Positions 3,113 to 42,877 of a stretch of 47,232 nucleotides of DNA are shown here, one piece after another. The notes beneath the pieces were generated by a model that did no database searches, was not told where the DNA came from, and was given only the letters and a program-made list of their open reading frames with translations. Origin of the DNA: Nitrospirota bacterium (GTDB lineage: Bacteria > Nitrospirota > Leptospirillia > Leptospirillales > Leptospirillaceae). Within the stretch, counting starts at the first letter, position 1. Each line of letters opens with the position of its first letter. The stretch lies in contig JAMCWM010000005.1 in the NCBI GenBank assembly GCA_023481175.1, positions 1-47,232 of the forward strand. The letters run 5' to 3'. The position numbers and the translations under genes are program-made.

Positions 3113-3193
3113 CTCCAATCTCCTTCCAAATAAAAAGGCGGAGAAGGCCTCGGCCTCCCCCGCCCTGATCACCCGGCGCGAGTGCCTCCCGAA

Positions 3194-3946
3194 CTATTGA
3201 CGGGACGCGCGTATGGCCTTGACGAGCTCGAGTCCGGTGTAGATCGCCTTCTGGTTTTCCGCATCCCCCACGAGGGAGAGAAGGCTGAAGATCCCGGAGC
3301 CGGTCTTGCCCTCGTCCGGGATCCGGTTCAAGGCGGAATGGAGAATCTCCATTTCCGAGATCCAGCGCTCGAGGGTCACCATGATCCGTTCGACGAACGG
3401 GTCGTTCGCGATCCGCGTCAGGGCCACGACTCCCGCCGCCACGTCGGGGAGGGTGTCCAGCGCTCCCACCTCTTCCATCTTCAGGGCGGCCTGGCTCAGA
3501 CGTTCGACCGGAAGGCTCATCAGCTGCTCCATCAGAGCGCTCGCCCGTTCGACCTGGCTGACAAGGCGCTCGAGCAGGCCGTCGGTCATCATCCGGTTCA
3601 CCGCGGCCGCGGCCGTTCCGATCTCGACCAGCATGTCGAGCCCCCCCGATGAGACAAGGGGCCCCAGCTTTTCCAGGGCGGGGATCACCGCCTCCACGTC
3701 CCGGAGTTTCTCGAGGACGGCGACGACCTGGGGATCGGCGGCCCGGTCGAGAAGCGTCACCGCCCGGTCGGCCGTATCGGCGACCCGTTCCACCAGCTGG
3801 TTCGACCCGATGTCCATCAGGGCCTTCTGGGCCGTCACCGCCTCCGCCAGCGTGTCGAGACGGTCGAGGATCCGCACCAGCAGTTCCTGTGTTGCCTTCT
3901 CTCCCAGCTTTTCGCCAAGGAGGTCTGTCCGGCTTTCTTCTCCCAT
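3194..3946 (-). CDS. DUF1641 protein, partner of the sulfide:quinone oxidoreductase
   Basis: 250 residues, strongly helical, with no membrane segment or cofactor motif. The composition and the repeated pattern of short amphipathic helices (for example a LVERVADTADRAVTLLD segment) match the DUF1641/COG2427 family, which is commonly found beside FAD-dependent quinone oxidoreductases. AGGAG sits six bases before the ATG and overlaps the stop of the preceding gene, which ends nine bases upstream: the two genes are almost certainly co-translated. I infer a membrane-docking or regulatory subunit for the oxidoreductase; the family has no settled biochemical function. Confidence 0.75.
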   Translation of the reverse strand: MGEESRTDLLGEKLGEKATQELLVRILDRLDTLAEAVTAQKALMDIGSNQLVERVADTADRAVTLLDRAADPQVVAVLEKLRDVEAVIPALEKLGPLVSSGGLDMLVEIGTAAAAVNRMMTDGLLERLVSQVERASALMEQLMSLPVERLSQAALKMEEVGALDTLPDVAAGVVALTRIANDPFVERIMVTLERWISEMEILHSALNRIPDEGKTGSGIFSLLSLVGDAENQKAIYTGLELVKAIRASRQ

Positions 3947-3955
3947 CTCGCTCTC

Positions 3956-5095
3956 CTATAGAATGCCTCTGGATGTCAGCCAATACATCTTGTTGTAGGA
4001 AATCTTCAGCCAGTGCACCATGGTCGTCGGCGTGGGAGGAGACGGCGGGGTGGTGTAGTTGAACGAGATGTAGCTGGCCTGGTTCCGTCCTGTCTCTATG
4101 AAGCAGAAGACCTTGCCGTCGTATTTGTGGGACGGTTTCTGACCGGAAAGGAGATCGACGACATTCTCGACGAGGACGTCCGCAGAGAAGTGGGCGGTGG
4201 AACCCGCCTTCGAAATAGGAAGATTGGTCGTGTCACCCACCACGAAGACATTCTCTGTCCCTTCCATCTGGAGGGTCTCCTTGTTGGTGGGGATCCAACC
4301 GCCTTCGCCCAGCTTGGAGTCGAGGATCACCTGGGCGCCCCGATGCTGGGGAATGGTGATCAGGAGGTCGAAGGGAAGCTGGCTTCCTTCCATACTGTGG
4401 ACAATCTTGTTCTTGACGTCGACTTCCTTCATGTTGAAGAAAACCTCGTACTTGATCCCCCGCTCATCGAAGGTCTGGGCGCCCCACTTGGCCACCGCGG
4501 GGATGGTGTGGACCGCCCCCACCGGATAGGTGTAGGTGATCTCGGTCTTGTCGCGGAGTCCGCGTTTTTTCAGGTAGTCGTCGAGCATGAGGGTCACCTC
4601 GACCGGGGCGACCGGACACTTGTGGGGAACACCCATCGAGATGACGATCTTGCCCCCGGCGAAACTCCGGAGGGCGTCGCGGAGCTTGATCGATCCCTCC
4701 TCGGTGTGAAACCAGTGGCCCGCCTCGATGAGGCCCGGAGTCAGGTCGGGGCGCGGGACGGATCCGGTCGCGATCACAAGGATATCGTACCCGTATTCCC
4801 GGCCTCCCTTCGAGGTCAGCTTCTGGCCCTTGATGTCGATGTTGGCGATCTCGTCCTGGACAAAGTCGATGGCGGAATCAAGGAGAGACTTCTGGGGACG
4901 CTTCAGGTCTTCCGGCCGGGAAAGATCGAAGGGAATGTAGAGCCATCCGGGCTGGTAGGTATGGGTGTCGGTGTTTCCGATCTGGGTGATCGAGACCGAT
5001 TTGGATCGAAGCTCGCCGGCGATCTTGCGGGCGAGCTGGTTTGCGACGATTGTGCCGGCGACGCCGCCGCCCAGAATCACGATTTTCTTGGCCAT
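3956..5095 (-). CDS. sqr: Sulfide:quinone oxidoreductase family flavoprotein
   Basis: 379 residues from ATG 5095, preceded by GGAGGAAAGA; an in-frame extension to 5173 would read through a large palindrome and is rejected. The N-terminus KIVILGGGVAGTIVANQLA is the FAD fold. Cys160 (in PHKCPVAP) and Cys331 (in KVFCFIETG) match the two conserved redox cysteines of SQR enzymes, and VFVVGDTTNLPISKAGSTAH is the FAD/quinone-binding motif near residue 285-303. A third N-terminal-half cysteine seen in some SQR types is absent, which suggests one of the types with two catalytic cysteines. The C-terminus ends in amphipathic segments suitable for membrane attachment. Reaction: sulfide oxidised to polysulfide or sulfur, electrons to the quinone pool. 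First gene of an apparent SQR-DUF1641-Lpd-like transcript. Confidence 0.88.
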   Translation of the reverse strand: MAKKIVILGGGVAGTIVANQLARKIAGELRSKSVSITQIGNTDTHTYQPGWLYIPFDLSRPEDLKRPQKSLLDSAIDFVQDEIANIDIKGQKLTSKGGREYGYDILVIATGSVPRPDLTPGLIEAGHWFHTEEGSIKLRDALRSFAGGKIVISMGVPHKCPVAPVEVTLMLDDYLKKRGLRDKTEITYTYPVGAVHTIPAVAKWGAQTFDERGIKYEVFFNMKEVDVKNKIVHSMEGSQLPFDLLITIPQHRGAQVILDSKLGEGGWIPTNKETLQMEGTENVFVVGDTTNLPISKAGSTAHFSADVLVENVVDLLSGQKPSHKYDGKVFCFIETGRNQASYISFNYTTPPSPPTPTTMVHWLKISYNKMYWLTSRGIL

Positions 5096-5110
5096 TCTTT
5101 CCTCCGACCT

Positions 5111-5152
5111 GGTCTGCGGGGCAGGGAAGAATTCTTCCCTGCCCCGCAGACC
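5111..5152. repeat. 42-bp perfect palindrome before the sqr ribosome site
   Basis: The sequence from 5111 to 5152 equals its own reverse complement over all 42 bases, with 21-base arms beginning GGTCTGCGGGGC and an EcoRI-like GAATTC at the centre. It ends 15 bases from the sqr start codon, immediately upstream of its ribosome site, and is not followed by a T-run. As RNA it would fold into a stem of about 19 pairs. It could be a leader hairpin stabilising the mRNA, an operator for a dimeric regulator, or a transposon/assembly relic. No second copy was noticed in the window. Confidence 0.9.
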
Positions 5153-5374
5153 GGATTGATCCTCGAGGCGCACGACCGGCGCCCCACGACAGATGGCCGC
5201 AAGACAGGGACGATACGACGATGCCTGATTCGGCTCTGTCTTCCGACCCCCCGATTCTAGTCCAACGGAGCTTGAACCGCAAGAAAAAATCTCGACGGAT
5301 CCACAGGTATTTGGAGAGTGAAAAAATCACCTTTACCCGGGACCGGAATACCTCCGCTAAACGAGGCGGTCCCG

Positions 5375-6994
5375 TCAGATCCGGAAGCGGTCTACCGCCG
5401 TGCGGAGGCTCTCCGAGCCTTCCCGGACCGCCCGGACATGGCCCGTCGTCTCCCCCGACAGGGCGGCGATGTCGTCGAATCCCTCGAGGGAGCGGGAGAG
5501 GAGTCCCCGGACATCCCGGATCGTCTGAAACTGCTTTTCGACGCTCCCCTTGAGCTCAAGCAGAACGCGTCGGGAGATGGTGTCGATCTCGGAGCGGATC
5601 TGCCGCAGGGACTCCTGAGCCCCCTTCGATTTCTGCTGGCTCTCGGAGACCCCGGAAGCCGAGCGCTCCAGGGAGCGGGAGAGTTCTCCGATCTCTTCCT
5701 GGACAGTTTTGACGATGGCGGCGATGGTATTGATCGACTGATCCGTCGTCGCGGCGAGCTTTCTCACCTCGTCCGCCACGACCGCGAATCCCCGTCCCTG
5801 CTCCCCCGCCCGGGCCGCCTCGACAGCCGCGTTCAGGGCCAGGAGATTGGTCTGGCCTGAGATCATCCGGATCTCTGTCACGATCGTCCCGATCTCCTCG
5901 GAACGCCGAACCAGGCTCTCCATGGTCTTCCGGCCCTGGAGAACCGAATCGGACAGGAGCTCGACAGACGCGAAGGCCTCCTGGACCGATCCCATGCCCT
6001 GCTCGGTGATCGCCTGGGCTCGTTTGGTCGTCTCTTCCGTTTCGCAAAAGGTCCGCGAAAGATCCTGCGATTCCTGGATCATCCGGTCTGCGATGGTTCT
6101 GAAGGAGGAGAACTCCCCCCGCAGGGCTTCGAGGCGTTCCAGAAGCCGGGTGGCATTTTCTTCCAGTCTCTCCGTCAGGGTATCCGTGGAGCTCACCTCC
6201 CGATGGACGATCCGTATGAGGGCCGAGATCTCTGTCACCATCTTCCCCATCTCCCGGACGAGATGGCCGAACTCGTCCTTCGCCCGGGCGAGGCGACTCT
6301 CCTGCTTCGAGACGAATTCCCCCCGGGCGAGTTCGCCCATGCGTCCGGTGACGCAGGTCATTCCCCGAGAGACCGTTCCCAGGATCCCGAGCCCCAGAGC
6401 GAGAATCGTCAGGGCGACGACCACCGAGGAAACCCCGGTGACCAGGACCGAGCGGGAAATCATCCGGCCGGTCTTCAAGGCGAGGAGCGTCCCCAGCTGG
6501 CTGTTGTAGGCGGCGATGGTGACGGCCGTCGCCCGGTAGGAACGGAAAAACTGCCCGAAGGAGCCTTCGTAGATGGCCCGGGCCGAGGAAAGCTGTCCGG
6601 CCCCGAGAAGGGCCCGGATCTGGATCTCGGCAAAGGAGATGCTTTTCCGGGTCTTTTTCAGGCGGTCGAGGAAGAGTCGGGCCGCGGAGGTCATTTCCAT
6701 GGAACCGAGCGCGGAGAGAAGAGCCATGTCCTTCCGGTCGAGGGAGAGAGAGAGATTGACCATCCGACGCCTGAGCCCCGTATCGGGAGCGTAGACCGCC
6801 ACCTGGAGGGCCCGCTCGAGGTCCGTGACGTGAACGGTGAGGCGGGAGGCAAGCGCGGTTTCTTTCTGGAGGGAGACCGTCTGGTCCATCACCCGCCGGG
6901 TCTGCCGGAAGGAGCGCACGGTCAGAACGGCGGAAACGGCCAGGAGAATGACGACGACAAAGAGCATGAGGGCAAGCTTGTTCCGGATCGACAT
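5375..6994 (-). CDS. Methyl-accepting chemotaxis protein
   Basis: 539 residues from ATG 6994, which follows a CTCAAAGGAGGC-type ribosome site; an in-frame extension to 7162 is unsupported. Topology is classical: membrane helix 1 at about 7-26, a helical periplasmic sensor region to about 182 (four-helix-bundle-like, no Cache signature), membrane helix 2 at about 183-206, a HAMP-like stretch, and a coiled-coil signalling domain. The highly conserved tip is at about 380-415 ([20 protein letters not shown] and then [15 protein letters not shown]). No CheB/CheR-binding pentapeptide is seen at the C-terminus. It lies upstream of the sulfide:quinone oxidoreductase on the same strand with a 279-base gap, so a shared response to sulfur or redox conditions is possible but only inferred. 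Confidence 0.93.
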
Positions 6995-41749: not shown

Positions 41750-42877
41750 ATGAAACGGATCGTCATCGCCGGTTCCGGCTTCGGGGGCCTCGCCGCAGCC
41801 CGGGAACTCCGGAACAGGGCTCCGAAGGAGACGGAGATCCTCCTGGTCTCCCCATTCCCCGAACTCCTCTACTATCCGGGGCTGATCTGGATTCCGACGG
41901 GGCTTCGCTCACCCTCCGACCTCCGGATCCCTCTGGGGGATTTTTTCCGGAAGCACCGGATCCGCCACCTGCCCGGAACCGTGACCGGAGTCGAGGAGAA
42001 GGGCCGGATCCTGGTGACCGACAGGGGCCGCCACGCGAACGACGCCCTCCTGATCGCCACCGGCTCCGCCTCCCTCCGGAAGCTTCCGGGGATCGAGCAC
42101 AGCCGGTCGATCTGCCAGGGGACCGAGGACGCCCTGGCCATCCGGGAGAGGATCGAGAGCCTGGAAACCGGCACCATCGCCCTGGGCTTTGCCGGCAATC
42201 CCGACGAGCCCTCGGCCGTCCGGGGAGGCCCCGTCTTCGAGCTCCTCTTCGGCCTCGACACCTGGCTTAGAAAGACCGGACGCCGGGGAAAGATCGCGCT
42301 CACATTCTTCAGCCCGGCCGCGGAGCCCGGGAACCGCCTGGGACCGAAAGCCGTCAGGAATCTCCTGGCGGAGATGGCCCGGCGGAACATCCCCACACAC
42401 CTGGGCTCCAGGCTCAAGAGCTTTTCCCCGGAAGGCGTGACGACCGAAACGGAGAGCTTTCCCGCCGACCTGATCGTCTTCACCCCCGGACTCCGGGGAC
42501 CGGACTGGGTGGCCCGAACCCCCCTCCCCCAGTCTCCGGGAGGCTTCATCAAGGCGGAGAAAACCTGTCAGGTGGAGGGGTGGCCCGGGACCTTCGTCGC
42601 CGGAGACTGCGGCGCCTATCCGGGACCGGACTGGATGCCGAAGCAGGGCCATTCGGCCGATCTCCAGGCCGAGACGGCTGCCCACAACCTCTGCGAGTTT
42701 CTGGAGGGACGGACCGGCACCCGGGAGTTCCGGGTCGAACTGGTCTGCATAGTCGACAGCCTCGACTCGGGCACCCTGGTCTACCGCACCCCGACCCGGA
42801 ACATCCTTTTGAAAAGCTCCCTCTTCCACAACGCCAAGTCCTTCTTCGAACGGAGGTACCTCGCCCGCTACCGCTAA
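41750..42877 (+). CDS. FAD-dependent oxidoreductase of the SQR/NDH-2 superfamily
   Basis: 375 residues from ATG 41750 (AAAGGAG upstream). FAD motif KRIVIAGSGFGGLAAARELR, then ALLIATGS and TFVAGDCGAYPGPDW near residue 285, and an KQGHSADLQAE segment at the position of the quinone pocket. Cysteines lie at the GDC loop and in a LVCIVD strand near residue 330, the latter like the C-terminal SQR cysteine, but the middle SQR cysteine (CPVAP context) is not present. NADH or sulfide as donor cannot be decided. It is the second such enzyme in the window. C-terminal basic amphipathic helix fits monotopic membrane binding. Confidence 0.8.
   Translation: MKRIVIAGSGFGGLAAARELRNRAPKETEILLVSPFPELLYYPGLIWIPTGLRSPSDLRIPLGDFFRKHRIRHLPGTVTGVEEKGRILVTDRGRHANDALLIATGSASLRKLPGIEHSRSICQGTEDALAIRERIESLETGTIALGFAGNPDEPSAVRGGPVFELLFGLDTWLRKTGRRGKIALTFFSPAAEPGNRLGPKAVRNLLAEMARRNIPTHLGSRLKSFSPEGVTTETESFPADLIVFTPGLRGPDWVARTPLPQSPGGFIKAEKTCQVEGWPGTFVAGDCGAYPGPDWMPKQGHSADLQAETAAHNLCEFLEGRTGTREFRVELVCIVDSLDSGTLVYRTPTRNILLKSSLFHNAKSFFERRYLARYR

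What the first reader, a model, noticed from the sequence alone, without database searches (positions are those of the whole stretch)
5111..5152. A 42-bp perfect palindrome in the sqr leader
Every base from 5111 to 5152 pairs with its mirror, with no spacer and a GAATTC centre, and the element ends 15 bases before the sulfide:quinone oxidoreductase start. Perfect spacerless palindromes this long are normally unstable in bacteria and it has no T-run, so it is neither an ordinary terminator nor a typical operator. It could be a leader hairpin that controls translation or mRNA life in response to acid, heat or sulfide, or a dimeric regulator site.
Basis: partly seen in the sequence, partly recalled or inferred. 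Interest (0 to 1): 0.72.

Follow-up and report, generated by a model that had tools for sequence, protein, structure and literature searches.

The report
Folded RNA leader before sqr
The 42-base palindrome is the extreme, perfectly matched version of a hairpin that related acid-mine bacteria appear to keep in the RNA just before a sulfide-oxidation gene, so it looks like part of an undescribed folded RNA leader rather than a protein-binding site or an error.

Summary
The palindrome is real: 5111-5152, 21 + 21 bases, no spacer, one copy. It is the third hairpin (P3) of a leader of about 150 nt before sqr: promoter-like motif, P1, P2, AGGAUnAAUCCGG, P3, CCWGG, Shine-Dalgarno GGAGGA, AUG. All 10 sqr genes found in 14 genus genomes keep the 3' half, and P3 bases change in step: 86.7% of cells paired against 72.9 +/- 4.2 in tree-aware neutral simulation (0/1000). 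P1 and P2 behave alike in the 7 leaders tested. Perfect symmetry occurs in 1 of 10 and is probably a repaired quasi-palindrome. Rfam has no credible match; the element was found only at sqr and only in this genus. Arm sequences vary, against an operator; stem energy ranges from -45 to -19 kcal/mol, against a thermometer. Best reading: a structured 5' UTR that sets mRNA life and ribosome access, perhaps with a bound factor. Function is unproven; the whole-leader fold does not favour P3 in 3 of 10, and the Shine-Dalgarno is predicted only 42-79% unpaired.

The parts
5111..5152 (-). P3 hairpin = the 42-bp perfect palindrome; as RNA a 19-bp stem with an AAUU loop; outer GG...CC invariant in the 10 leaders
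   Evidence: exact palindrome; fold; compensatory changes in relatives
5153..5163 (-). conserved linker AGGAUCAAUCC (AGGAUnAAUCC in 8 of 10; AAUCCGG in 10 of 10); could form a small GGA[UnAA]UCC hairpin or extend P3 through CC:GG
5164..5188 (-). P2 hairpin (form in close relatives GGGGCGCC...GGCGCCCC)
   Evidence: tree-aware test 82.4% paired against 65.1 +/- 6.6, 2/1000 (7 of 10 leaders)
5195..5248 (-). P1 hairpin (GGUCGGAAGACAGAG / CCCUGUCUUGCGGCC, with a G.G and an A.C mismatch here)
   Evidence: tree-aware test 91.4% paired against 82.1 +/- 3.8, 3/1000; 6 pairs with double change, 0/1000 (7 of 10 leaders)
5254..5282 (-). putative promoter TTGCGG - 17 - TAGAAT, similar in 8 of 10 leaders; not reported by the promoter scan
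   Evidence: alignment; no hit, so inferred
5106..5110 (-). A and GGUC after P3 (CCWGG in 9 of 10, CCAGU in L012); GG can pair with CC of the linker
5100..5105 (-). Shine-Dalgarno GGAGGA, invariant in 10 of 10, outside P3; predicted unpaired 0.42-0.79 among species
3956..5095 (-). sqr, sulfide:quinone oxidoreductase (379 aa, related to type III)
   Evidence: NF049943, E 5e-111, 371 bits, below that model's cut-off of 525; solved SQRs
3194..3946 (-). conserved downstream gene, 250 aa, no Pfam or NCBIfam match at E 0.001; follows sqr in 15 of 15 loci compared
3135..3166 (-). intrinsic-terminator-like hairpin with T-run after the sqr pair of genes

Best explanation
The palindrome is the DNA of an RNA hairpin, P3, the last of three hairpins in a structured 5' leader of the sqr mRNA kept in this genus of uncultured bacteria related to Leptospirillum. 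Shown here: its position, the paired changes, the invariant core around the foot of P3 and the Shine-Dalgarno, and that it was found only at sqr. Inferred: that it is transcribed; that the leader shields the mRNA 5' region from decay and fixes the surroundings of the Shine-Dalgarno at the foot of P3, so that it sets how much sqr and its partner protein are made; that a factor may bind the conserved core and adjust this. The perfect symmetry in this one species probably arose by template-switch repair of an imperfect hairpin and is not itself needed.
For: Ten aligned leaders: invariant AAUCCGG and GGAGGA, nearly invariant CCWGG, variable stems. P3: 85.8% of cells paired (9 distinct rows), shuffles 78.0 (0/500), 67.7 and 59.9% when slid by one; tree-aware simulation 0/1000 for pairing and 2/1000 for double changes. 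RNAalifold on 7 leaders: 42 pairs, 17 with kept double changes. P1 and P2 covary too. The 60 bases 5' of the Shine-Dalgarno of sqr are the most stable among 104 gene starts in a 306-kb sample of the genome (-46.4 against mean -16.0, sd 6.5, sqr included). Covariance models find the element at sqr in the 10 of 14 genus genomes that have a full-length sqr (the models were built from these leaders, so this is by construction; the news is the lack of other strong matches). Template-switch repair of quasi-palindromes into perfect ones is described in E. coli (PMC7202029, two passages, one in the abstract).
Against: No expression, probing or transcript data. In L010, L011 and L012 the computed ensemble of the whole leader plus 60 nt of coding sequence does not favour P3 (outer P3 probability 0.00, 0.23, 0.00), and the Shine-Dalgarno is predicted only 0.42-0.79 unpaired and the AUG 0.34-0.68 among the 10, so an open ribosome site is not shown. 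103-nt folds of L011 and L012 are no more stable than shuffles (z -0.48 and 0.66) although P3 is in them, and that of L010 lacks P3. Only 10 sequences from one genus. P1 and P2 were tested on 7 of 10 leaders; in L011 and L012 the upstream half and the promoter-like motif are not recognisable. The 5 sqr leaders examined from other genera of the family have no such element, so it is not needed for sqr as such. Template switching can itself make paired changes without selection on RNA. The promoter scan reported no promoter.
Confidence: 0.55

Rival explanations
1. Binding site (operator) for a dimeric transcription factor.
For: A perfect dyad is the usual shape of a dimer's site (recalled); it lies between the putative promoter and the start codon.
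Against: Arm sequence differs among species while pairing is kept; 1 of 10 is perfect; single copy in the genome; it lies about 100 bp downstream of the putative -10 motif.
Confidence: 0.06
2. Translational control by CsrA (or a similar GGA-binding protein): AGGAU in the linker and GGAGGA at the ribosome site are the two contacts and P3 brings them together.
For: AGGAU in 8 of 10 leaders and GGAGGA in 10 of 10; csrA found in 13 of 14 genus genomes. That GGA is the core of CsrA sites is recalled.
Against: L011 and L012 lack the linker GGA; GGA in the linker would sit in a stem if the linker hairpin forms; GGA in a Shine-Dalgarno is not specific; csrA was not found in the window's own genome, which is 89% complete.
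Confidence: 0.15
3. Riboswitch or other direct sensor RNA (sulfide, persulfide, acid, metal) that exchanges the linker hairpin GGA[UnAA]UCC against the CC:GG extension of P3 and so changes access to the ribosome site.
For: Invariant core next to variable stems; the two pairings exclude each other and their G-C and A-U pairs are each possible in 8 to 10 of 10 leaders.
Against: The core is short for a metabolite pocket; the pairs concerned hardly vary, so they give no covariation evidence; the predicted balance differs widely between species and both are near zero in L010-L012; no Rfam match.
Confidence: 0.1
4. Mutational artefact: a quasi-palindrome that template switching keeps symmetric, with no RNA function.
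For: The perfect copy in one species fits such repair (mechanism in PMC7202029); a 30-bp perfect palindrome also stands between genes that read as dnaK and dnaJ.
Against: Same place in 10 of 10 leaders, conserved flanks, exchanges spread over species, stems that stay imperfect in 9 of 10, and two further covarying hairpins.
Confidence: 0.1
5. Assembly fold-back in the draft assembly.
For: The window comes from a 55-contig draft genome, and the relatives found are metagenome assemblies; no reads seen.
Against: Unique flanks on both sides match the orthologous leaders and the stem lies where relatives have one.
Confidence: 0.02

Closest known systems
Structured cis-regulatory mRNA leaders (Rfam Cis-reg class)
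   Same: Several hairpins in a 5' UTR with compensatory changes and a conserved core directly before the ribosome site of one gene
   Different: No Rfam family matches credibly; found at one gene in one genus; no known ligand or binding protein; transcription not shown
5' stabiliser hairpins such as that of E. coli ompA (recalled)
   Same: Stem kept while its sequence is free, ribosome site outside the stem
   Different: Here P3 abuts the ribosome site and has a conserved sequence core at its foot; effect on mRNA life untested
CsrA-repressed leaders such as glgC (recalled)
   Same: GGA in the leader and GGA in the Shine-Dalgarno
   Different: Linker GGA missing in 2 of 10 and possibly paired; binding untested
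Hairpin between the genes that read as dnaK and dnaJ in the same genome
   Same: Perfect spacerless palindrome of 30 bp ahead of a coding start
   Different: Between two genes in one direction, no shared core seen; not followed in relatives

Membership tests
Structured cis-regulatory leader RNA (general class) | Compensatory base changes that keep helices | tested here: met
   (P3 on 10 leaders, P1 and P2 on 7)
Structured cis-regulatory leader RNA (general class) | Transcribed as part of the mRNA leader | not testable with these tools
   promoter-like TTGCGG-17-TAGAAT upstream, inferred only (none)
Structured cis-regulatory leader RNA (general class) | Changes expression of the downstream gene | not testable with these tools
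   no expression data
Known Rfam family | Score above a curated threshold | tested here: not met
   (window 4900-5500): 16 of 16 matches below their gathering scores, 10 of 16 of them microRNA models; best E 0.0009
Intrinsic terminator | Stem followed by a T-run | tested here: not met
RNA thermometer | Ribosome site inside a stem that melts near growth temperature | tested here: not met
   Shine-Dalgarno outside P3; P3 -45.2 to -18.6 kcal/mol among species; predicted Shine-Dalgarno access rises by at most 0.10 from 37 to 45 C
Dimeric operator | Half-site sequence conserved in orthologous sites | tested here: not met
REP/MITE or other repeated palindrome | Many copies in the genome | tested here: not met
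   these two arms and one lone arm-like place with 3 mismatches
CsrA target leader | Second GGA outside the ribosome site, in a loop | tested here: inconclusive
   AGGAU in 8 of 10; in a stem if the linker hairpin forms
CsrA target leader | csrA present | tested here: inconclusive
   13 of 14 genus genomes, but not in the window's own draft
Riboswitch | Direct ligand binding with a structural change | not testable with these tools
   no probing possible

The most novel reading that the evidence does not exclude
A genus-specific riboregulator dedicated to sulfide oxidation: the invariant AGGAUnAAUCCGG...CCWGGGYGGAGGA core between P2 and P3 senses a sulfur species or binds a dedicated protein and toggles the linker UCC between its own small hairpin and the foot of P3, moving a rigid stem against or away from the ribosome site of sqr. 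No sulfide- or persulfide-responsive RNA turned up in the paper searches made here (listings only).
Probability: 0.1. Interest if true: 0.8.

Novelty: new member of a known kind. Interest (0 to 1): 0.45.

Why it matters
It turns a curious palindrome into a candidate regulatory RNA for a sulfide-oxidising enzyme in bacteria related to Leptospirillum, where no RNA control of sqr turned up in the searches made (listings). It gives a defined element (three stems and a core) for reporter tests, and a clear example of how a hairpin kept by selection can drift into a perfect DNA palindrome.

Tried and rejected
Rejected: terminator (no T-run); thermometer; operator; repeated element; N-terminal extension of sqr through the palindrome from the upstream GTG at 5173 (the open frame runs only 7 codons beyond the 379 in G004, and P3 is 41 to 45 nt long in different species); assembly fold-back.

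Led nowhere: Rfam on 601 bases. Covariance search for further copies in 14 genus genomes and in 148 genomes of the phylum: apart from sqr leaders and the reverse strand of P3 only weak matches (best E 0.0009); 11 of these were read, and all 11 lie under open frames of at least 100 aa on one or the other strand, which is weak evidence in G+C-rich DNA; the rest were not read. These searches score only a part of the candidates of a first look (150 per genome), so a weak copy could be missed. The 5 sqr leaders from other genera of the family (L014-L018): no similar element by eye and no clear excess stability (z 1.42, -0.41, -1.55, -0.40, 0.14). A first count of gene starts missed sqr through a poor start rule and was replaced. 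Paper searches, seen as listings with abstract starts only: 0 papers held sulfide quinone, untranslated region and hairpin together; one held riboswitch, sulfide and persulfide, none about such an RNA by title and abstract start; one held Leptospirillum and riboswitch; 10 held Leptospirillum, sulfide quinone and sqr; 4 held the hairpin / Shine-Dalgarno / mRNA stability terms; 5 the quasipalindrome terms; 10 of 466 shown. Two papers were looked at in passages (PMC7999016; PMC7202029).

Selection of rows: alignment A1 (P1, P2) holds 7 of 10 leaders; L006 (nearly the same as L005) and L011, L012 (upstream half not alignable with confidence) were left out. A2 (P3) holds all 10, 9 distinct. The eight P3 stretches folded are one each of L004, L005, L008-L013.

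Full report
What is there. The window lies in a 55-contig draft genome of 2.32 Mb, estimated 89% complete. The palindrome at 5111-5152 is exact and single. It lies 15 bases before the ATG of sqr, whose 379-aa product is related to type III sulfide:quinone reductases (E 5e-111 but 371 bits against a cut-off of 525) and to solved SQRs. sqr is followed in 15 of 15 compared loci by an uncharacterised 250-aa gene (L015 and L042 appear to be the same contig), and in the window then by a terminator-like hairpin at 3166-3135.

Relatives. Of 14 genomes of the genus, 10 have a full-length sqr at 91-100% identity; the other 4 (66-81% complete) have only distant matches or none. In all 10, the bases before the start codon follow one plan: AAUCCGG, a stem-loop, CCWGG (CCAGU in one), GGAGGA, ATG. 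The stem-loop is perfect only in the window; in the other 9 it has mismatches or bulges, and no perfect stem of 8 or more with a loop of up to 12 is found at that place. Eight leaders also share a promoter-like motif and an alignable upstream half with two further hairpins; in L011 and L012 that half is not recognisable.

Test of the RNA reading. On 10 leaders (9 distinct) P3 has 85.8% paired cells, against 78.0 in shuffles (0/500) and 67.7 or 59.9% when slid by one base; 8 pairs have a change on both sides against 4.6 in shuffles (12/500). Since shuffles ignore kinship, I simulated neutral change on a tree of the sqr genes with the same minimum number of changes per column: P3 86.7% against 72.9 +/- 4.2 (0/1000), double changes 8 against 3.3 (2/1000); P1 91.4% against 82.1 +/- 3.8 (3/1000), double changes 6 against 0.9 (0/1000); P2 82.4% against 65.1 +/- 6.6 (2/1000), double changes 5 against 2.0 (18/1000). 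P3 slid by 1 or 2 either way was not beyond its null (42 to 137 of 200 for pairing, 18 to 95 of 200 for double changes). The pairs of P2 were taken from the RNAalifold consensus of the same 7 sequences and those of P3 and P1 from inspection of them, which favours them. The pattern is what RNA hairpins under selection look like, and not what a conserved operator looks like.

Results against. Folded as a whole with 60 nt of coding sequence, L010, L011 and L012 do not favour P3 (0.00, 0.23, 0.00), while the other 7 do (0.95-1.00); the Shine-Dalgarno is predicted 0.42-0.79 unpaired and the AUG 0.34-0.68. L010 forms P3 in one context and not in another. Isolated P3 stretches fold as hairpins in all 8 tried, z from -9.44 to -2.24. 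The 103-nt leaders of L011 and L012 contain P3 but are not more stable than shuffles; L005 is only mildly so (z -1.64). So thermodynamic support is strong in 7 of 10 and comparative support carries the rest.

Background. In 306,232 bases of the genome (47,232 of the window and 259,000 fetched) the palindrome is the longest; second is a 30-bp one between two genes that read as dnaK and dnaJ by eye. Among 104 gene starts picked by a simple rule, the 60 bases 5' of the Shine-Dalgarno of sqr are the most stable, -46.4 against a mean of -16.0.

Distribution. Models R1 and R2, built from the leaders themselves, find the 10 leaders; other matches in the genus, leaving out the reverse strand of P3, start at E 0.026 (R1) and 0.0015 (R2). 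In 148 genomes of the phylum, with stricter filters, R2 finds nothing at E 0.01 in the 7 family members of other genera and two weak matches in the remaining 127, both under open frames. As far as searched, the element is tied to one gene in one genus.

Mechanism. Shown: covarying hairpins and a conserved core. Inferred: transcription from the TAGAAT motif; a role in mRNA life and ribosome access. The wide range of P3 stability (-45.2 to -18.6 kcal/mol) suggests that the exact strength of P3 is not under tight control, which argues against a switch that must melt it and for a structural role with recognition at its foot. The linker UCC can pair with its own GGA or with the GG after P3; the predicted balance differs between species, so a switch is neither supported nor excluded. 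CsrA is a candidate binder: present in 13 of 14 genomes, not found in the own draft, which may be incomplete there.

Why perfect. PMC7202029 (two passages, one in the abstract) states that template switching turns quasi-palindromes into perfect or more perfect inverted repeats. The sister of the window's species on the sqr tree (printed without support values), L008, has an interrupted stem, so the perfect state was gained here or lost there; repair by template switch is the simplest account but is inferred. The same process could by itself make paired changes, which is why it stands as a rival. PMC7999016 was seen in passages only and gave no length limit for bacteria there.

Verdict. Observation confirmed; hairpin interpretation supported, operator and thermometer not; a candidate structured leader RNA without a match in Rfam, function open.

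Noticed in passing
L121 6988-7017 (G000 contig C6 86988-87017): A 30-bp perfect spacerless palindrome between two genes that read as dnaK and dnaJ (by eye, no family search), ahead of the second gene's start; same style of hairpin as at sqr, no shared core seen.
   Followed up: partly
L120 1615-1641 (G000 contig C6 61615-61641): 13-bp perfect stem with a one-base loop, ending in a run of five T, between two genes on the - strand; perhaps a terminator.
   Followed up: no
window 41753-42760 (+): A second, distant relative of sqr (28% identity, E 1e-19) in the same window.
   Followed up: no
window 3194-3946 (-): 250-aa protein with no Pfam or NCBIfam match that follows sqr in 15 of 15 compared loci, including other genera at 30-36% identity; a likely partner of SQR.
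   Followed up: partly
L011 (G010) and L012 (G002), about 150 bases before sqr: In these two genomes the sqr leader keeps the 3' half but has a different upstream half and no recognisable promoter-like motif.
   Followed up: no
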